NCBI GenBank assembly: GCA_028284065.1
Contig: JANQSJ010000014.1
Location: 186,001-250,000 of the forward strand
Origin: Parvularculaceae bacterium
Lineage (GTDB): Bacteria; Pseudomonadota; Alphaproteobacteria; Caulobacterales; Parvularculaceae
Direction: 5' to 3'
DNA length: 64,000 nt
Shown: positions 4,181 to 11,453 of the stretch, piece after piece
Numbering within the stretch: the first letter of the stretch is position 1
Layout: the number at the start of each line of letters is the position of its first letter
The notes under the pieces: generated by a model
Database searches by the model: none
What the model saw: only the letters and a program-made list of their open reading frames with translations
Told to the model about the DNA's origin: nothing
Made by a program: the position numbers and the translations under genes

Positions 4181-5131
4181 ATGTTTCGCGACTTCGAGAT
4201 ATCCGGCAACCAGCTCATTCTTAAGGAGACGGGCGCGCACATCCCGCTGACGACCGACCTCGCCAAGGAAGCGTTCCGGATCGCGAGTTTCGTCGGCCTA
4301 GTGCAGGGGGTGAGAGCAAGCCGTTTCCTGCGCGGCCGGGAGCCGCGGGCGCGGATTTCCTTTTTCCCGCGCAAGCCGCGCTCCTACTATGCGATCTGGC
4401 CCGTCTGCCAACTCGCCGACGTGAAAATCGTCGACGCCCACGAAGAAGCGGACATTCACTTTTATTTCGAGGACGTTGAGTTTCTGACCGCGCCGCGCCG
4501 CACGCCGACGAACCGGCCGGCGCTCAATGTGGGTTGCCACGACATCCGCAAGAGCGTTGTCGCCCGCGTTTTCGAAGAGACCTTCGGCTATTCCCTGACC
4601 ATCAATCCGCACGATTATCATGGCCCGGCGGTGGAAAAGTCGGAAAGCAATGGCAAGCATGACGGGCGCATCGTCGACTGCCCGATGGTCTCTCCTCGTC
4701 ATGACCGAGTCTATCAGCGCCTTATCGACAATACCTTTGATGGGGGCGACTTTGTGGACATCCGCACCCCGATCGTCGGCGGGCGCATCCCTTTCGTCTA
4801 TCTGAAGCGGCGCACCCGCTCCTTGCGTTTTTCAAACGAAAATCACCGCGTCGACCTCGTTGAGGCCGACACGATGCTCTCCCGAGAGGAACAGGAGAAG
4901 ATAAAGGCGTTCGCGCGCGCGATGCGGCTTGATTTCGGCGGGCTCGACGTCCTGCGCCATCGCGATGACGGCCGCATTTACATTGTCGACGCCAACAAGA
5001 CCGACATGGGCCCGCCAGCGGCGCTTAACGGCAAGGAAAAGTTCCGGGCGATGCGCGGCCTCGCGGACGCCTTCGCCGGCTTTGTCGACGAGCTCCTGCC
5101 CGCTTCAACCCGCCCCGCGGCGCATGGCTGA
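4181..5131 (+). CDS. ATP-grasp-like protein of unknown substrate
   Basis: 316 residues from the ATG at 4181, which has AAGGGA 10 bases upstream; in-frame ATGs at 4082 and 4106 would lengthen the protein by 33 or 25 residues. The C-terminal third (RLDFGGLDVLRHRDDGRIYIVDANKTDMGPP-type sequence, residues about 245-275) has the pattern of ATP-grasp enzymes, where acidic residues and the Asn bind the magnesium ions of ATP. The middle contains HDIRKSVVARVFEETFGYSL, recalling the lysine-bearing strand of those ligases. No substrate domain is recognised. It overlaps the next gene by 8 bp, so the two are probably co-translated. Confidence 0.6.
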   Translation: MFRDFEISGNQLILKETGAHIPLTTDLAKEAFRIASFVGLVQGVRASRFLRGREPRARISFFPRKPRSYYAIWPVCQLADVKIVDAHEEADIHFYFEDVEFLTAPRRTPTNRPALNVGCHDIRKSVVARVFEETFGYSLTINPHDYHGPAVEKSESNGKHDGRIVDCPMVSPRHDRVYQRLIDNTFDGGDFVDIRTPIVGGRIPFVYLKRRTRSLRFSNENHRVDLVEADTMLSREEQEKIKAFARAMRLDFGGLDVLRHRDDGRIYIVDANKTDMGPPAALNGKEKFRAMRGLADAFAGFVDELLPASTRPAAHG

Positions 5132-6074
5132 GGGCGACGGGCCCGCACGTCCGTCCGAGATCCCGTTCGTCAAGGACGTTGAGTTCGAATACGGCCGCCC
5201 TGACGCATTATCCCCGCTCATCCGGCGTGTGATCGCCAACAACCCGGGGCCTTTCACGTATACGGGCAGCGGGACGTATATTGTCGGGCCGGAAACAGGC
5301 CCGGTCGCCGTCATTGATCCGGGACCCGACCTTCCTGGGCATATAGACGCCCTTTGCGATGCGATCGGCGCGGCCCAGGTTTCTCATATCCTCATCACCC
5401 ATACGCACCAGGACCATTGCGGTGGGGCGCGCGCGTTCGCGGCGCGCGTTGATGCGCCGATCCTCGGATTTGGTCCGCACCCTTCGCCACAGCAGCAACC
5501 CCTCGCCAAATCGCCGGCGCTGGAGGAAGACGGCGACGGCGCCTTCGCGCCGGATGCCGAAATCGGCGACGGAACCGTGATTGAAGGCGACGGTTGGCGG
5601 CTCGAAGCGATTCACACGCCAGGCCACCTCTCGAACCATCTGTGTTTCGCGCTGCCGGAGGAGAAAGCGCTCTTCTGCGGCGATCATGTGATGGGCTGGT
5701 CGACGACCGTCGTCGCGCCGCCCGACGGCGACATGGACGCGTATATGGAGAGCCTCGACCTTCTCCTCGCCCGAGACGATGAACGCTACTACCCGACCCA
5801 TGGGGCGCCGATTGATGCGCCGCAGCGTTTCGTGCGCGCGATCCGCGCCCATCGGCGCATCAGGGACGGGCAGATCCTCGATCAACTGAAAGCCGGCAAG
5901 ACCGGCATCCCTGAGATTGTCGACGCGGTCTATCTGGGGCTCGATCCGCGCCTCAAACCCGCCGCGGCGTTGAACGTCCTGGCGCATCTCATCCGTCTAA
6001 AGAAAGTTGGCGACGTTACGTGTGACGGCGAGGCGGGGTTGGGGTCTGGATTTGCGTTGGTTGCTCGGCGGTAG
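5124..6074 (+). CDS. Metallo-beta-lactamase-fold hydrolase (LACTB2-like)
   Basis: 316 residues. The zinc motif THTHQDHCGG near residue 92 is the MBL signature HxHxDH; further ligands are the His in HTPGHLSNH, the Asp in FCGDHVMG and the His in YPTHGAP. After the MBL domain, residues about 230-300 form a winged-helix-like tail (PEIVDAVYLGLDPRL, ALNVLAHLIRLKKVG) as in LACTB2-type proteins. LACTB2 in animals is a ribonuclease; bacterial relatives are uncharacterised hydrolases, so substrate is open. The start ATG lies inside the end of the ATP-grasp-like gene. Confidence 0.88.
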   Translation: MAEGDGPARPSEIPFVKDVEFEYGRPDALSPLIRRVIANNPGPFTYTGSGTYIVGPETGPVAVIDPGPDLPGHIDALCDAIGAAQVSHILITHTHQDHCGGARAFAARVDAPILGFGPHPSPQQQPLAKSPALEEDGDGAFAPDAEIGDGTVIEGDGWRLEAIHTPGHLSNHLCFALPEEKALFCGDHVMGWSTTVVAPPDGDMDAYMESLDLLLARDDERYYPTHGAPIDAPQRFVRAIRAHRRIRDGQILDQLKAGKTGIPEIVDAVYLGLDPRLKPAAALNVLAHLIRLKKVGDVTCDGEAGLGSGFALVARR

Positions 6075-6222
6075 GTAGCTGGCGCGGGTCACGCACGTGA
6101 ACGGGCGCCAACAATCGGCCGGCAAATTTGACAATCGGACATTTTGTTTTTGAGGGCGTCGAACCCAGATATCAAGGGATAGGGCGATCGCGGTCGCGAC
6201 ATCGGCGAGCCTTAAACGACTC

Positions 6223-6993
6223 TCACCGGACCGCCTCGATTTCGGCTGCGACTAGGTTCGCCGTCGCCATGGTGCGGTCCCTCGTCGTGGGGTAGTTGAG
6301 CATCGCGACGATGTTCTGGCTGAGCGAGTATCGCAACATCCCCTTTAGGCGCAGGTCACTCTTAATCTCCTGGAGCATCCCTGCGCTATCGACGGCTTTG
6401 AGTTGTTCCGCACACCCCCGGGTCAATCGTTCACTGACAGCAGCCACGTCCACCTCCCAGCATCCGCTCCACAAAATTCGGGCCGCGTCGGGTTCGATAT
6501 ATTCCCGAACTGTCTCACGAAAGGGCGGCGACGTCTGGTTGATCAATCCGAAGCTGTCGGTCAGGTTATAGGTCGTCAAAAGCTCCTCACGCAGCACATT
6601 GTCGGACGGAAACCCGAGTTCGATCGCTTCGAGGAAAGCTGTTTGCTCGAATGTGATCGCCCAAACTTGCGAGGCGTGGAAAAAGTCAATGAGAAGCTCT
6701 TCGCAAGCCACCTCGCAGTCCTTTGACTCTTTCAAAAATACGAGCGCACGATTCCCGGCTTCCGTGACGATGGTGTAGTAATCAAGCAGAAGCGCGGACC
6801 GCTCGGCATTCTGAATCAATTCTTCGTGCAGCAGGACGAGGTAGGAACGCTCCTGCGCCTTAACCGCCCGCGCCTCGTTCCAATTGCCAAGCTGAATGCC
6901 CATGAAGACGCCGACCACGACGATAACGAAGTCAATGCCGATCGCCGTCCAGTTCTGGGTGCGGACGTGTTCGATCATGCGGCGGAGGATCAT
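6223..6993 (-). CDS. DUF6090-like membrane-anchored protein, array member 6 (last transcribed)
   Basis: 256 residues. Residues 1-40 are the array's shared anchor: a basic tip (MILRRMIEHVRTQNW), then a hydrophobic segment carrying an Asp at position 21 and ending GIQLGNWNEAR. The rest (41-256) should lie outside the inner membrane and is helical in character. The shared motif around residues 120-143 is weakly kept (FLEAIELGF, LREELLTTYN). Uniquely in the array it has four cysteines in the exported part (93, 97, 178, 194), which could form disulfides. Its ATG overlaps the preceding gene's stop by 4 bp (6990-6993). Function unknown; family assignment rests on the anchor and the motif. Confidence 0.8.
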   Translation of the reverse strand: MILRRMIEHVRTQNWTAIGIDFVIVVVGVFMGIQLGNWNEARAVKAQERSYLVLLHEELIQNAERSALLLDYYTIVTEAGNRALVFLKESKDCEVACEELLIDFFHASQVWAITFEQTAFLEAIELGFPSDNVLREELLTTYNLTDSFGLINQTSPPFRETVREYIEPDAARILWSGCWEVDVAAVSERLTRGCAEQLKAVDSAGMLQEIKSDLRLKGMLRYSLSQNIVAMLNYPTTRDRTMATANLVAAEIEAVR

Positions 6994-7730
6994 TGCTCGG
7001 CCTCGGTTTCCGGCGCGTCGCTTGCTCTGCAAGGCTCGCCCAATTCCTGCAAGATGCCGCAGACCAATTCCAGAGATCTCTGGTGCCAGTCGAGGTCGAT
7101 TTCTAGGTACAAGGACATACTGCCCAACCGAACATAAACGTCGGGAGGCGAAGCGCGCTCCGATAAAATTGCTGTAAATTCTTCGGAGCGTCGCTCCGGG
7201 GGTATCGCCGCAAGCCTGCCCACATCCCAGATGCGTCTAAAATCTTCACTTGCCTCCTGGAACAAACTGGCCCCTGCCGTGACATGGCGTACGGACGTGC
7301 TTTGAAATTCCAGAAGCAAGTCGACGAGGTCAGGGGACCCAAGCAGGTCCATATCTCCCTGATTGATGAGCTCCGCAACGGTATTGGATCCACCAGCGGG
7401 CACATGCCAACTGATCGCCAAACTGCGATCGGCGAACTCTTGGGTTTGTAAGTCTATGGCGCCGGAAAGGACATCTTCGGCCAGACCGTCAGCCAAATCA
7501 CGCCACCTTGTCACATTGCGGACATGGCGAGCCACTTGCGGTTCGATGTCGATGAACTCAGCCGCAAGGCGGGCCCTGATGCTTTCACCGCGGGCTTCTT
7601 CCGCCCGCGTCTCGTTCCAGTTGCCGAGCTGAATACCCATGAACACACCGAGCACGACGATAACGAAGTCGATGCCGATCGCCGTCCAATTCTGGGTGCG
7701 GACGTGTTCGACAATGCGGCGGAGGATCAT
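6990..7730 (-). CDS. DUF6090-like membrane-anchored protein, array member 5
   Basis: 246 residues. The anchor (residues 1-41) is nearly identical to that of the other members and differs mainly at I6/V7 and L27. The exported part is strongly diverged, with a recognisable VAELINQGDMDLLGSPDLV motif at about residues 118-136, the counterpart of the 'F-x-E-L-x-x-x-G-x-L' segment of its neighbours. Two cysteines lie near the C-terminus (LELVCGILQELGEPC). The start ATG overlaps the stop of array member 4 by 4 bp, and its own stop overlaps the start of member 6. Overlaps of this kind usually mean translational coupling. No enzymatic motif is seen. Confidence 0.8.
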   Translation of the reverse strand: MILRRIVEHVRTQNWTAIGIDFVIVVLGVFMGIQLGNWNETRAEEARGESIRARLAAEFIDIEPQVARHVRNVTRWRDLADGLAEDVLSGAIDLQTQEFADRSLAISWHVPAGGSNTVAELINQGDMDLLGSPDLVDLLLEFQSTSVRHVTAGASLFQEASEDFRRIWDVGRLAAIPPERRSEEFTAILSERASPPDVYVRLGSMSLYLEIDLDWHQRSLELVCGILQELGEPCRASDAPETEAEQ

Positions 7731-8461
7731 TCTTGGGCCTCGGTTTCAAGCGCTGTGATAAGGTTTTCCGTCGCCTGGATGAAGTCCGTAAGCGAACCTA
7801 GTTGCTGCTTCGCCTGAAGGTGTCTGAACGCTATGGCCCCATCAAGAGTTCTGTTCGCGCGAATGTCGTCGAGATCAAACTGAAAGCGCTCGGCAGACGG
7901 TATGTCGATATAGCGCGAGTCAGCCCGCGCAACGTTCGTAAAGACCATCGATTCCATGAAAATTGGGATGAGGATACTAATGCGCATATCCTCAAGGCCT
8001 TGATCAGCAGTCCTGATTGTGCTGAGGCGCGAGTCCCATTCGTGTATCATATTGCGCAAGATTTTGTCGTCCACTTTGCTGAGGACGCCGGTCATCGCCA
8101 TTTCTTCATATGCCCGAAACCGCACGGCTAAGGCCCGCCCGCGCAGGGCCGAAACCGTTAAGCGGTACAGGTCGGCTTCTGGAAACGCCTCGTCACTCTC
8201 AAGTCGGGTCTTCAGTTCAATCGCGCTCGAAATGCGGTCGCCATAGTACGCCTGCACGTCCGCCATTTCTCCTCGCGCGAGAATGAGCTCCTCCCGGAAG
8301 CTATTGAGTTGGGCGCGAATGCGCTCCTGTTCGGCGCGATGGGCGGACCACTCCTGCACCTGTAGGCCGATGAAAACACCAACAACAACGATGAGAAAGT
8401 CGAGTGCGACAGCCGTCCAGTTCTGGGTGCGGACGTGTTCAATGACGCGGCGGAGGATCAT
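7727..8461 (-). CDS. DUF6090-like membrane-anchored protein, array member 4
   Basis: 244 residues. Its membrane segment is the most diverged of the array (VALDFLIVVVGVFIGLQVQEW) but keeps Asp21, Gly28, Gly32, Gln34 and Trp38. The exported part is clearly related to that of array member 3 along its whole length: compare RAQLNSFREELILARGEM with KSQLDSFRTELIMARSDL, and the shared ERFQFDLDDIRAN / DRFEFDVDAIRAN segments near residues 190-205. This pair therefore looks like the most recent duplication. The motif YEEMAMTGVLSKVDDKILR sits at about 118-136. Four-base overlaps link it to both neighbours. Function unknown. Confidence 0.8.
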   Translation of the reverse strand: MILRRVIEHVRTQNWTAVALDFLIVVVGVFIGLQVQEWSAHRAEQERIRAQLNSFREELILARGEMADVQAYYGDRISSAIELKTRLESDEAFPEADLYRLTVSALRGRALAVRFRAYEEMAMTGVLSKVDDKILRNMIHEWDSRLSTIRTADQGLEDMRISILIPIFMESMVFTNVARADSRYIDIPSAERFQFDLDDIRANRTLDGAIAFRHLQAKQQLGSLTDFIQATENLITALETEAQE

Positions 8462-9195
8462 GGCGCGCCTTCCTCCAGCGCGGCGATCAACTCTTCGCTG
8501 GTTATGCGAAACGCCCTCAGCCGCTCAAGTTTTTGCACCATAAGCACGTGGCGCAATGCAAGCGCATTATCGAACTCAAGGTTGGCGCGGATAGCATCCA
8601 CATCAAATTCAAACCGATCGGCTCGGGTTATAATATCTTCATAGGGTTCATACTGCTGATAAGCATTCCCAAACACAGTGGTCGATGAGTAGCTGGGTAA
8701 TATTGTCGTCGCCCGGAATTCCTCGCCCGTAACATCAACATTGCGAATTGCCGCCAGTTCATTGTCCCAGCGAAAAACAAGATCTCGAAGCGCACCGTCG
8801 GAGATCCGCGCGAGGGCGCCGGACGATGATAGTTCCTCGAAATTTCGATACAGAATATTGAATTGAAAATCCCGGATTGCCGAGAATGCGAGCCGGCCAA
8901 ACGCGTCTTCCGTCAGCGGCGGCTCGTCCGTTGCGAGCCGCGTGCGCAGTTCTGCGGCGGCGTTTGATCGGGCTGTATAGTAATCTTCAAGGTCATCGAG
9001 ATCGCTGCGCGCCATGATCAGCTCAGTCCGAAAACTGTCGAGCTGCGATTTAAGCAGCTCGTCGTCGGCGCGCGCCTCGTTCCAGTTGCCAAGCTGAATG
9101 CCCATGAAGACGCCGAGCACGACGATAACGAAGTCGATGCCGATCGCCGTCCAGTTCTGAGTGCGGACGTGTTCGACAATGCGGCGGAGGATCAT
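8458..9195 (-). CDS. DUF6090-like membrane-anchored protein, array member 3
   Basis: 245 residues. It has the standard anchor (MILRRIVEHVRTQNWTAIG, then a hydrophobic stretch to residue 35), a probable coiled-coil region at about 42-90 (DELLKSQLDSFRTELIMARS) and the clearest copy of the internal motif, FEELSSSGALARISDGALRD at residues 119-138. That motif and the acidic residue inside the membrane segment are what link the family to DUF6090, whose Bacteroidota members carry an 'IGEIxLVVIGILIALQINNWNE' anchor. It is the closest relative of array member 4. Four-base overlaps link it to both flanking genes. Confidence 0.82.
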   Translation of the reverse strand: MILRRIVEHVRTQNWTAIGIDFVIVVLGVFMGIQLGNWNEARADDELLKSQLDSFRTELIMARSDLDDLEDYYTARSNAAAELRTRLATDEPPLTEDAFGRLAFSAIRDFQFNILYRNFEELSSSGALARISDGALRDLVFRWDNELAAIRNVDVTGEEFRATTILPSYSSTTVFGNAYQQYEPYEDIITRADRFEFDVDAIRANLEFDNALALRHVLMVQKLERLRAFRITSEELIAALEEGAP

Positions 9196-9944
9196 CCTTC
9201 GTCTCCGCTCGCGTCGTCCTTAAGAAGCAGACGAATGTCGTCAACACGCTGGCTGATCCGCGATCGCCAGAGAATGATGCCGCTGTGGACGAACAGTAAT
9301 TGTTCCGCTGCATTCGCGAACGCGGGATCGGCGGCCAACGCGTCGAAGTCATAAGAAACCACCGACGCCGCTTCGCTGCCGTTCGCGAACACCTCCTCAG
9401 TTAGTCGCATGTCGACATTGTAGTGGAACGCCGACGTATAGGGACCAAAAGTGTGCATCGCCATGTCTCGATAATACTCCTGCGCAAAGCCGAAGCGCTC
9501 GAGAAAATCCTCATAGTCAACAAGCGCGTCCAGAAGCTGCCGATCCCTCAAAATGCTCGCTCGCCCTGACGACATCAGCTCACGGAAACTGCCGGGGTTG
9601 TCGGCGCTTGTTTGGAATGCGAACCCCACCACGAGCGCGCGTTCGAACCCTGCGAGGTCTTCATCCTCCAGCGTGCCCACGCGAAGGGAACGAACCATGG
9701 TCCGCAAATCGGACTCCAATTGCTTGTGGTAGGCGAGGCTGCGGTCGGAATCCTCTTTAATGCGGTCGAAATCGACCCTGATCCTCTCGACCAGCGCCAC
9801 TTCCTCCTGCCGGTCGAGGCGCTCCTGGTTCCAGTTGCCAAGCTGAATACCCATGAATACGCCGACCACGACAATGACGAAGTCGAGGACAATGGCCGTC
9901 CAGTTCTGGGTACGGACGTGTTCGATGACGCGGCGCAGGATCAT
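9192..9944 (-). CDS. DUF6090-like membrane-anchored protein, array member 2
   Basis: 250 residues. Standard anchor with the variant TAIVLDFVIVVVGVFM. A charged helical region follows (QEEVALVERIRVDFDRIKED, about 47-66), and the internal motif FRELMSSGRASILRDRQLLD lies at 120-139. The exported part has no cysteines. Start and stop codons overlap those of the flanking array members by 4 bp. It is more distant from members 3 and 4 than they are from each other. No catalytic motif is visible. Confidence 0.8.
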   Translation of the reverse strand: MILRRVIEHVRTQNWTAIVLDFVIVVVGVFMGIQLGNWNQERLDRQEEVALVERIRVDFDRIKEDSDRSLAYHKQLESDLRTMVRSLRVGTLEDEDLAGFERALVVGFAFQTSADNPGSFRELMSSGRASILRDRQLLDALVDYEDFLERFGFAQEYYRDMAMHTFGPYTSAFHYNVDMRLTEEVFANGSEAASVVSYDFDALAADPAFANAAEQLLFVHSGIILWRSRISQRVDDIRLLLKDDASGDEG

Positions 9945-10717
9945 TCCTGTTGCTCCAGCTCTGCACGCAACGCCGCCTCAAGCTTCTCCGCGTCGGCGCG
10001 AAGTGTATCCATTGCCTGCCAATGGAGGACGCCGTACTCCAGCACCGTCCGGACGGCGGCTTCAAGCTCTGGGTTCGCTTGTATAAGCTTTGCCAGTTCT
10101 TCGTCTTCGACGTCCTTAAACGGGCTCAGGCCGTGTTCCTGCCCCACAAAAATGAGCCGGTCCCTAAACGGACGAAACGTGGCGTCCTGAGAATTCTCCA
10201 GCGCCTCCCAAAGCGCTGTGTACTTTTTCAGGTCGTGGACGAGCTTCTCGTCCGAGATCAGCGATAAATCTCCCGCCGCAATCAGGCCGCTGAACGCGGC
10301 GTCATTTTGCGAAGGATAATAACGAAGCGCGATCGCGGTCCATAATTGTACCGGATTTGCCTCACGCGACGCCCCATCCTCCAGGACAGGCATATCGCCC
10401 GAGTCCAAAATCGATGCGAAGATTAGCGTTTTGACCTCGGTCAGCGTTTGCAGGCCTGCGCTTTCGAGCAAACGGTTCGACGCCTGGGTGGCCAGCACAG
10501 CGGCATCCAGTGCGTCATTGAGTCCAACAAAGTCTGCTTCGACGTCGTCGAGTATCGCGGCGAGGGCGACCTGTTCCTTGGCGGCGTTCGCGCGGGCGTC
10601 GTTCCAGTTGCCAAGCTGGATACCGATGAACACGCCGACCACGACAATGACGAAGTCAATGCCGATTGCGGTCCAGTTCTGAGTGCGGACGTGTTCGATG
10701 ACGCGGCGTAGAAGCAT
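9941..10717 (-). CDS. DUF6090-like membrane-anchored protein, array member 1 (first transcribed)
   Basis: 258 residues, the longest copy. It begins MLLRRVIEHV rather than MILRR. The ATG at 10717 is preceded by AGGAAAGG about 5 bases upstream, the only strong ribosome-binding site in the array outside the overlaps, which fits its position as the lead gene. The hydrophobic anchor spans about 17-36. The internal motif FSGLIAAGDLSLISDEKLV occupies 142-160, some 22 residues later than in the others, reflecting an extra segment before it. Its stop overlaps the start of member 2 by 4 bp. Function unknown. Confidence 0.8.
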   Translation of the reverse strand: MLLRRVIEHVRTQNWTAIGIDFVIVVVGVFIGIQLGNWNDARANAAKEQVALAAILDDVEADFVGLNDALDAAVLATQASNRLLESAGLQTLTEVKTLIFASILDSGDMPVLEDGASREANPVQLWTAIALRYYPSQNDAAFSGLIAAGDLSLISDEKLVHDLKKYTALWEALENSQDATFRPFRDRLIFVGQEHGLSPFKDVEDEELAKLIQANPELEAAVRTVLEYGVLHWQAMDTLRADAEKLEAALRAELEQQE

Positions 10718-10931
10718 GCAGACCTTTCCTCGACGAAAGCCATAAAAGGGTTTTTGGCGAGGATATAGGGGTGCGTTCCGGGCTAGAAGCCTCGCGTTGC
10801 ATAACTCGATGCTTACGCAACGGCGCTCTCATCCTGTCGATTCAATGCCTAGGCTGTTGCGCAAGTCCGTTGCGCATCCGGCTTCCTAACGCAGAAAGCC
10901 CGTCCGTCTCCCAATCTCCCATCGCGTCAAA

Positions 10932-11453
10932 TCAGACGCTCCGCGCAAGCCGCCGCTTGGCCTCTTCGACAAAACGGGTTTGAGCCTCAGTCGGATCGCC
11001 TTCGGCCTGCGCCATCGTCTCCAGCATGACGAGGAAACGTCCGCGCTCCTCCTCGTCGCAATGCGCTTCGATCGGCGCCAGGAGCTTGCGCATCGCCCCG
11101 CCGGCGTCCGCCACCTGACCAACCGCCATGCGGGCGAAGGCGAAGAGCTCATTGACGGTCTGATCGTCGGCCTGAAACTCATTGCGCATCAGTGAGAGCA
11201 TCACATCGCGCTGGCGCTCAGTGACGGCGCCGGCGTAGCTGGCGATCTGGTAGAGCGCGATGGACGCCGCCTCGCGCGGGTCTTCAATCGTCTCCACGAG
11301 CCTTTGATTGGCCTTTCGCGACCACTTGCCCGATCGCCAAAGCCCTTTGGCGTCTCGCAACGCCTCCCGACCTTCATGCGCCGCGCCGACGAAGTATCGA
11401 AACGCGAAAAAGAGCGCGGCGAGCCCGCCAAGAATGGCTATAATAATGTGCAC
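10932..11453 (-). CDS. TerB-like protein with N-terminal membrane segment
   Basis: 173 residues from a GTG at 11453 with the ribosome-binding sequence AGGGGAG upstream. Residues 1-20 (IIIAILGGLAALFFAFRYF) are hydrophobic and probably membrane-inserted. Residues about 58-170 (DPREAASIALYQIASYAGAV, TERQRDVMLSLMRNEFQ, MLETMAQAEGDPTEAQ) have the helical spacing and acidic turns of TerB / DnaJ-associated TerB domains. TerB proteins are linked to membrane stress and metal-binding complexes, but single-domain versions are uncharacterised. It lies 214 bp upstream of the DUF6090-like array on the same strand; co-transcription is possible. Confidence 0.6.
   Translation of the reverse strand: MHIIIAILGGLAALFFAFRYFVGAAHEGREALRDAKGLWRSGKWSRKANQRLVETIEDPREAASIALYQIASYAGAVTERQRDVMLSLMRNEFQADDQTVNELFAFARMAVGQVADAGGAMRKLLAPIEAHCDEEERGRFLVMLETMAQAEGDPTEAQTRFVEEAKRRLARSV

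What the first reader, a model, noticed from the sequence alone, without database searches (positions are those of the whole stretch)
6223..10717. Six-gene tandem array of DUF6090-like membrane-anchored proteins with 4-bp overlaps
Seen: six consecutive minus-strand genes of 244-258 codons, each start overlapping the previous stop by exactly 4 bp. All share residues R4-R5, E8-A17, D21-F22, I24-V26, G28-F30, G32, Q34 and W38, while the exported parts differ greatly. Known: DUF6090 has a similar anchor with an acidic residue in the membrane segment and is uncharacterised. Inference: a multi-subunit or variable set of envelope proteins in which identical anchors let different exported domains assemble together. 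Arrays of this depth are not something I know to be described.
Basis: partly seen in the sequence, partly recalled or inferred. Interest (0 to 1): 0.8.

Follow-up and report, generated by a model that had tools for sequence, protein, structure and literature searches.

The report
Shared-anchor, swappable-body membrane gene array
Six overlapping bacterial genes encode proteins that share a closely similar, predicted membrane anchor but mostly unrelated remainders, and in related genomes anchors tend to match neighbours in the same array while the remainders recur in other species, so recombination at the anchor-coding DNA likely swaps the predicted exported parts in and out of sets that would sit together in the inner membrane.

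Summary
In detail: six minus-strand genes (244-258 aa), every junction a 4-bp ATGA overlap, all stated residues shared. The genome has 14 copies at four sites; genomes of its family have 0-38, and unbroken runs reach 12. The new point is how anchors and exported parts evolve. Anchors (about 40 codons) resemble array neighbours, silent sites included. Exported parts (about 200 residues) form 62 sequence clusters (27 with more than one gene); the larger ones recur across genomes in different order. In 187 of 246 non-independent tests a gene's anchor was closer to its different-body neighbours than to its body relative elsewhere. In one genome an unrelated secreted gene inside an array starts with 11 anchor codons (up to 94% DNA identity), then diverges at once. 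Bodies are predicted helical bundles, mostly with even cysteine counts and under purifying selection; 12 of 13 tested body types link to others by profile, but 0 of 90 bodies match DUF6090 without the anchor. Most likely these are recombination-built operons of single-pass inner-membrane proteins showing different periplasmic heads.

The parts
9941..10717 (-). gene 1 (258 aa), first gene of the array; body cluster 2
   Evidence: DUF6090 22.8 bits, cut-off 23.5
9192..9944 (-). gene 2 (250 aa); body cluster 4, body 80% identical to that of L052 gene 4 (an alphaproteobacterial MAG)
   Evidence: DUF6090 22.3 bits
8458..9195 (-). gene 3 (245 aa); body cluster 17; AlphaFold model pLDDT 85.1, all helical
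7727..8461 (-). gene 4 (244 aa); body cluster 17 like gene 3, but the least similar anchor of the array
6990..7730 (-). gene 5 (246 aa); body a singleton cluster (61)
6223..6993 (-). gene 6 (256 aa, ATG start at 6993); body cluster 0, the commonest type; four conserved cysteines and an HASQ motif; AlphaFold model pLDDT 90.7
10592..10717 (-). anchor-coding segment of gene 1 (codons 1-42)
9819..9944 (-). anchor-coding segment of gene 2
9070..9195 (-). anchor-coding segment of gene 3; 95% identical in DNA to those of genes 5 and 6
8336..8461 (-). anchor-coding segment of gene 4; nearest anchor lies in another array of the same genome (83%)
7605..7730 (-). anchor-coding segment of gene 5
6868..6993 (-). 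anchor-coding segment of gene 6
10932..11453 (-). flank: TerB-domain gene, upstream edge of the variable site
   Evidence: Pfam TerB 28.8 bits; synteny in relatives
5100..6074 (+). flank: metallo-hydrolase-like gene (name from reading, not from a profile search), downstream edge of the variable site; start codon not fixed
   Evidence: synteny in relatives

Best explanation
The six genes encode proteins with a closely similar N-terminal segment, predicted to be a membrane anchor, and mostly unrelated remainders, and they likely form a single operon whose remainders, predicted to be exported, are swapped in frame by recombination within the roughly 120-bp anchor-coding repeats, with products that would pack side by side in the inner membrane. 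Shown: anchors tend to follow the array and the genome while bodies follow their own families across species; stop-start overlaps of 4 bp or 1 bp are kept at most junctions; the closest body pairs are under purifying selection; copy number differs widely between relatives. Inferred from sequence: N-in/C-out topology (arginine-rich N-terminus, one hydrophobic stretch at about residues 18-37), a periplasmic body (even cysteine counts), a helical-bundle fold (AlphaFold). Mechanism proposed: each anchor-coding segment is a direct repeat about 750 bp from the next, so unequal crossing-over or gene conversion between them adds, removes or replaces one body with its stop codon, keeping frame and overlap; incoming bodies thereby take on the local anchor. 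At protein level the invariant G28, small residue 32 and acidic residue 21 likely let anchors pack with each other or with one common partner, so that one cell displays several different periplasmic binding heads on one kind of membrane stalk. The recombination part I hold at about 0.8, the mixed packing at about 0.4, and the binding role of the heads as the least certain step.
For: Array here means same-strand family genes with gaps up to 2.5 kb. Anchor DNA identity is 0.761 for same-array pairs with different bodies, 0.737 between arrays of one genome, 0.689 for the same body type in other genomes and 0.667 for different bodies in other genomes (286 of 305 genes in register). Silent-codon identity at shared residues: same array 0.645 (expected from codon usage 0.402), other array of the same genome 0.559 (0.387), between genomes 0.507 (0.374); window array 0.711 (0.384). 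The excess of same-array over other-array codon identity (0.088) was not reached in any of 2000 label shuffles (mean 0.052). Nearest anchor lies in the same array for 91 of 209 genes (5.1 expected), nearest body for 13 of 208. In 187 of 246 non-independent tests the mean different-body sibling anchor beats the anchor of the gene's own body relative elsewhere. Of 8 cross-genome pairs with bodies 80-93% identical, the anchor differs more than the body on both silent and replacement measures in 3, on one in 4, on neither in 1; e.g. L062_2/L116_2: body dS 0.21, dN 0.03, anchor pS 0.47, pN 0.10. Capture of an unrelated gene: L039:1156-2055 begins with 11 of 11 anchor residues (E 2.1e-4 among 3593 neighbouring ORFs of 80 aa or more, many spurious), with up to 94% DNA identity over 33 nt and then background. 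Of 239 adjacent same-strand pairs, 144 overlap by 4 bp and 48 by 1 bp. Export: of 305 bodies 96 have no cysteine, 198 an even number and 11 an odd number. Fold: models of genes 3 and 6, whose bodies do not match each other directly by profile, have the same order of helices and share their best structural matches. Residue 21 acidic (230 D, 56 E), G28, and G or A at 32, each in 286 of 286. Turnover: 0-38 copies in 62 genomes of the family; no array at the window's site in G001, G003, G007 and G008.
Against: Amino-acid identity of anchors is almost the same within an array (0.739) and between arrays of one genome (0.734), so at protein level the anchor is a genome trait more than an array trait; only the silent sites separate arrays. 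The anchor keeps more silent identity than codon usage predicts even between genomes, so some constraint unrelated to within-array recombination exists. In 59 of 246 tests the body relative's anchor was as close or closer; L117_3/L118_4 (anchor 0.92) and L053_3/L092_1 (0.91) look as if whole genes moved. In 2 of the 11 genomes listed (JALHM, JAAWWS) the silent-site trend is reversed. Gene 4's anchor is closer to an anchor of another array than to its siblings. No data on transcription, localisation or interaction exist here. The promoter scan was uninformative (2 found, 1.6 expected). No known fold is matched above what the aligner reports for helical bundles in general.
Confidence: 0.6

Rival explanations
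1. Lineage-specific duplication only: whole genes duplicate in tandem, the anchor stays conserved by selection on its protein function and the bodies diverge fast; no recombination is needed.
For: Anchor residues are under strong constraint; anchor similarity at protein level is the same within and between arrays of one genome.
Against: Sibling bodies are mostly unrelated to each other (90 of 845 same-locus pairs have a body hit) while the larger body clusters recur in other genomes; several bodies that are 80-93% identical across genomes carry anchors that differ more than the bodies do (both measures in 3 of 8 pairs, one measure in 4, neither in 1); silent sites are more alike within arrays.
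Confidence: 0.15
2. Immunity or exclusion repertoire: each periplasmic body neutralises one class of incoming toxin, phage component or conjugation factor, and the array is a stock of such shields.
For: Copy number varies 0-38 within one family; the window's array sits at a site with variable content and lower G+C (56-59% against 60-71%); body types recur across distant taxa.
Against: No PADLOC match for the six genes, no plasmid or phage match for gene 2, the only one searched, bodies under purifying rather than diversifying selection (omega 0.08-0.33 in 39 of the 40 closest pairs, one not computable, many with near-saturated silent sites); none of the eight neighbouring proteins that I annotated is a defence or toxin family, other neighbours were not annotated.
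Confidence: 0.2
3. Interchangeable rods of an ExbD/TolR-like proton-driven motor: the acidic residue near the cytoplasmic end of the membrane helix would couple to a shared channel protein and the different bodies would be alternative tools.
For: An acidic residue at position 21 in 286 of 286 anchors, a single predicted N-terminal membrane helix and a periplasmic body; the comparison with ExbD, TolR and MotB is recalled, not computed.
Against: No ExbD profile match at E<=1 for the six genes; no channel-type protein among the eight annotated neighbours (not searched otherwise); aspartate and glutamate both occur (230 and 56), which is unusual for such motors (recalled).
Confidence: 0.05

Closest known systems
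DUF6090 (Pfam PF19578)
   Same: Anchor and start of the following helix match the profile's first part (profile 2-52 for gene 1, 2-138 for gene 2); some relatives are named 'DUF6090 family protein' by NCBI
   Different: 0 of 6 window genes reach the cut-off in hmmscan; 0 of 90 exported parts match without the anchor; no paper in the library holds the name or the accession
Gene families with conserved ends and exchanged segments, such as Helicobacter bab genes and the 3' domain exchange of meningococcal TpsA (seen only as search listings, PMC4552749 and PMC3848433; details recalled)
   Same: A conserved coding end serves as recombination substrate and different segments attach to it
   Different: Here the shared part is a predicted inner-membrane anchor of about 40 residues, the genes lie head to tail with overlaps, and each member is a complete protein rather than a silent cassette
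Periplasmic four-helix-bundle sensor domains (Tar, NarQ, PilJ, MCP2201)

Membership tests
DUF6090 (PF19578) | full-length protein reaches the curated Pfam cut-off of 23.5 bits | tested here: inconclusive
   hmmscan: 0 of 6 window genes (best 22.8), 1 of 8 other family genes of the same genome (L005:9677-10444, 23.7); whole-genome search: that gene (24.5) and gene 1 (23.8 with neighbouring matches counted) are over it
DUF6090 (PF19578) | exported part matches the profile without the anchor | tested here: not met
   0 of 90 body-only pieces at E<=0.01 (90 chosen from 285)
Shared-anchor family described here | N-terminal anchor with W15, acidic 21, G28, small 32 | tested here: met
   all six window genes and all 14 copies of the genome; W15 was used to select the 286 genes
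Shared-anchor family described here | exported parts are mutually related | tested here: met
   13 body types tested, the largest of the 62 clusters plus the gene 3 type: 93 of 156 ordered pairs at probability 80 or more; 24 of 24 reversed controls at 20.4 or less; cluster 5 links to none; the gene 3 and gene 6 types link only through other clusters
ExbD/TolR (recalled model) | match to the ExbD/TolR profile | tested here: not met
   no such family among Pfam hits up to E=1 for the six genes
Chemoreceptor-type sensor | second membrane helix followed by a cytoplasmic signalling domain | tested here: not met
   in both models the last long helix runs to the C-terminus (residues 206-243 of 245; 215-255 of 256) with nothing after it
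Chemoreceptor-type sensor | four-helix-bundle sensor fold | tested here: inconclusive
Known anti-phage defence proteins | match to a PADLOC model | tested here: not met
   none at E<=0.1 for the six genes

The most novel reading that the evidence does not exclude
Bacteria of this family keep a recombination-driven repertoire of periplasmic receptors: whole binding domains are imported and shuffled between species, are given the local membrane anchor as they enter an array, and because the anchors match, the products assemble at random into mixed complexes whose composition, and so what the envelope recognises, changes with each recombination event; the anchor-coding 5' end can even capture genes of unrelated secreted enzymes.
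Probability: 0.2. Interest if true: 0.85.

Novelty: new variant of a known kind. Interest (0 to 1): 0.62.

Why it matters
Gene families with a shared end and exchangeable remainder are known for surface adhesins and toxins (recalled). Here the same logic appears to act on complete, overlapping genes for predicted inner-membrane proteins, with up to 38 copies per genome, in a family for which the searches of the paper library found no description. It gives a testable explanation for how overlapping operons can grow and shrink without breaking translational coupling (the repeat boundary is the start codon), and it turns an anonymous DUF-like family into a system with clear predictions about membrane packing and exchange.
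Full report
What is there. The six genes are real and placed as described. Each junction is an ATGA overlap, so there is no spacer between genes. Upstream there are 214 bp to a TerB-domain gene; downstream lies a convergent metallo-hydrolase-like gene. The array's G+C is 56-59% against 60-71% in the other kilobases of the first 20 kb.

Copies. The genome (3.74 Mb, 19 contigs) has 14 copies with the full anchor: the window array, four overlapping genes on contig 18 (L005:7433-10444), three on contig 9 (L020:5350-8786, with a hydrolase gene between the second and third) and a single gene on contig 14 (L021:6298-7056). Of 41 genomes in a relatives search, own included, 24 have matches; of 62 genomes of the same family, own included, 46 have them, with 0-38 copies (for three genomes only 45 candidates were scored); of 398 genomes drawn from the phylum 14 do (at most seven candidates per genome scored). 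Named loci (111 confirmed of 124 stretches, best 80 kept as 74 loci) are nearly half Parvularculaceae by record title (34 of 74, counting Marinicaulis, Parvularcula and Aquisalinus), with others in Hyphomonas and Henriciella, Lysobacterales, Woeseiaceae, Alteromonadales, Erythrobacter, Sphingomonas and unnamed MAGs, and single contigs labelled Opitutales and Gemmatimonadota.

Arrays. From 118 loci and the window I called 443 anchor ORFs and kept 305 complete, non-duplicate genes. Of 239 adjacent same-strand pairs 144 overlap by 4 bp and 48 by 1 bp. Unbroken runs reach 12 (L107) and 11 (L040). So six is not exceptional depth in this family.

Anchors follow the array or genome, bodies follow their type. 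Bodies (residues 46 to end) fall into 62 clusters, 27 of them with more than one gene. The larger clusters recur in many genomes in different order; within a locus only 90 of 845 gene pairs have any body match. Listing the anchors array by array shows it: in L040 nine of eleven genes, with several body types, begin MIL[RQ]RLT and continue to RKQDW; all eight L109 genes begin MLLRRITEHV; all nine L106 genes have EF at 21-22. Numbers: anchor DNA identity 0.761 for same-array pairs with different bodies, 0.737 between arrays of one genome, 0.689 and 0.667 between genomes with same and different bodies. At protein level same-array and other-array values are nearly equal (0.739 and 0.734); at silent sites they differ (0.646 and 0.559; 0.645 and 0.559, against codon-usage expectations 0.402 and 0.387). 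Shuffling array labels inside genomes never reached the observed difference (0 of 2000, observed 0.088, shuffled mean 0.052); the trend is reversed in 2 of the 11 genomes listed there. The nearest anchor is in the same array for 91 of 209 genes, the nearest body for 13 of 208. In 187 of 246 comparisons, which are not independent, different-body siblings have on average the closer anchor than the body relative in another genome; in 59 they do not. In the window, gene 6's body is 58% identical to a gene of Glaciecola, whose anchor DNA matches at only 64%, while gene 6's anchor is 95% identical to that of gene 3, which has an unrelated body.

A captured gene. Among 3593 neighbouring ORFs (80 aa or more, many spurious, some loci overlapping), an anchor profile (residues 1-17) has one clear match outside the family: a secreted protein in L039, seen again in the overlapping locus L054. 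It begins with 11 of 11 anchor residues; DNA identity to siblings is up to 94% (median 85%) over 33 nt and at best 62% over 60 nt. A relative of it in L042 begins MIPWRLTEHVKVQYWIAVGV (E 0.069; up to 73% over 60 nt), and a third in L038 has no anchor start as called. The three proteins are 54-65% identical; the L042 copy has a weak SprT-like match (21.8 bits, cut-off 25.6) and all three an HEMKH stretch. This is a direct picture of an anchor start joined to an unrelated gene.

Bodies. Of 305 bodies 96 have no cysteine, 198 an even number and 11 an odd number, which points to disulphides and so to the periplasm. The gene 6 type has invariant C93, C97, H106, A107, S108, Q109, W175, C178 and C194. 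AlphaFold models of genes 3 and 6 (pLDDT 85.1 and 90.7) have the same plan: amphipathic helix 2-12, one helix from 15 to 88, two short helices, a return helix and a last long helix; the gene 6 model adds a short two-strand insert. Body-only profile comparison of 13 body types links 12 of them (93 of 156 ordered pairs at probability 80 or more, reversed controls 24 of 24 at 20.4 or less), cluster 5 with none; gene 3 and gene 6 types connect only through other clusters, such as 1, 2, 3 and 8. The 40 closest pairs show dN/dS of 0.08-0.33 in 39, one not computable; silent sites are near saturation in many. Bodies thus look like conserved families, not hypervariable ones.

The site. ATP-grasp-like, metallo-hydrolase-like, TerB, PdxH-like and AroC-like genes (names from reading, apart from TerB) lie together in relatives, as far as the fetched stretches show. 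In G008 the matched parts of the hydrolase and TerB genes are 58 bp apart; in G003 and G007 other genes occupy about 2.3 and 1.9 kb there; G001, of the same genus, lacks the TerB gene. None of these four stretches shows a match to genes 1, 2 or 6. The fifth stretch, of G006, had only the hydrolase and ATP-grasp genes and is not informative. The array is thus a lineage-specific occupant of a variable site.

How it most likely works. Shown are the modular pattern, the overlaps, the selection and the copy-number differences. Inferred are the single transcript, the topology, recombination as the cause, and packing through the anchors. The anchor segment begins exactly at the start codon that overlaps the previous stop, so a crossover inside it exchanges a complete body together with its stop and leaves frame and overlap intact. 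That protein-level anchor identity is genome-wide, not array-wide, suggests selection for anchors to match one another or one common partner, beyond conversion alone. I therefore read these as operons for a set of periplasmic heads on a common stalk, with mixed packing likely and binding or sensing as the most probable use of the heads; the weak resemblance to four-helix sensor domains is a lead only.

Membership. I do not file the genes as DUF6090: the whole-protein cut-off is at best borderline and the exported parts do not match. The anchor region is DUF6090-like.

Noticed in passing
L020:4820-5353 (own genome, contig 9) and L039:9462-10004: Small single-pass-looking proteins (177 and 180 aa, '...EVRQN' and '...QVRQN' after the hydrophobic stretch, no Pfam match above cut-off) recur beside the arrays on the same strand: 10 members in 9 genomes (5 within 20 bp) and 14 members in 8 genomes (9 within 20 bp). 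Possible partner or sister family.
   Followed up: partly
L074:2153-4012 and similar: Proteins with another repeated anchor start (FFSELKRRNVIRMAGLYLV...; TPR repeats in the one annotated) recur in 13 genomes near these arrays (28 members, 7 within 200 bp).
   Followed up: partly
L039:1156-2055, L042:7314-8180, L038:10246-11103: Secreted SprT-like gene embedded in arrays, two of three copies starting with anchor-like codons.
   Followed up: yes
L107:13336-13848: DUF4440/SnoaL-like, lipoprotein-like gene recurs in 7 genomes (8 members, 6 within 200 bp of an array gene).
   Followed up: no
window 5100-11453: Variable site between a metallo-hydrolase-like gene and a TerB gene: empty in G008, other cargo in G003 and G007.
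   Followed up: partly
anchor codons of all array genes: Silent-codon identity of the anchor exceeds codon-usage expectation even between genomes (0.507 against 0.374), which within-array conversion alone does not explain.
   Followed up: no
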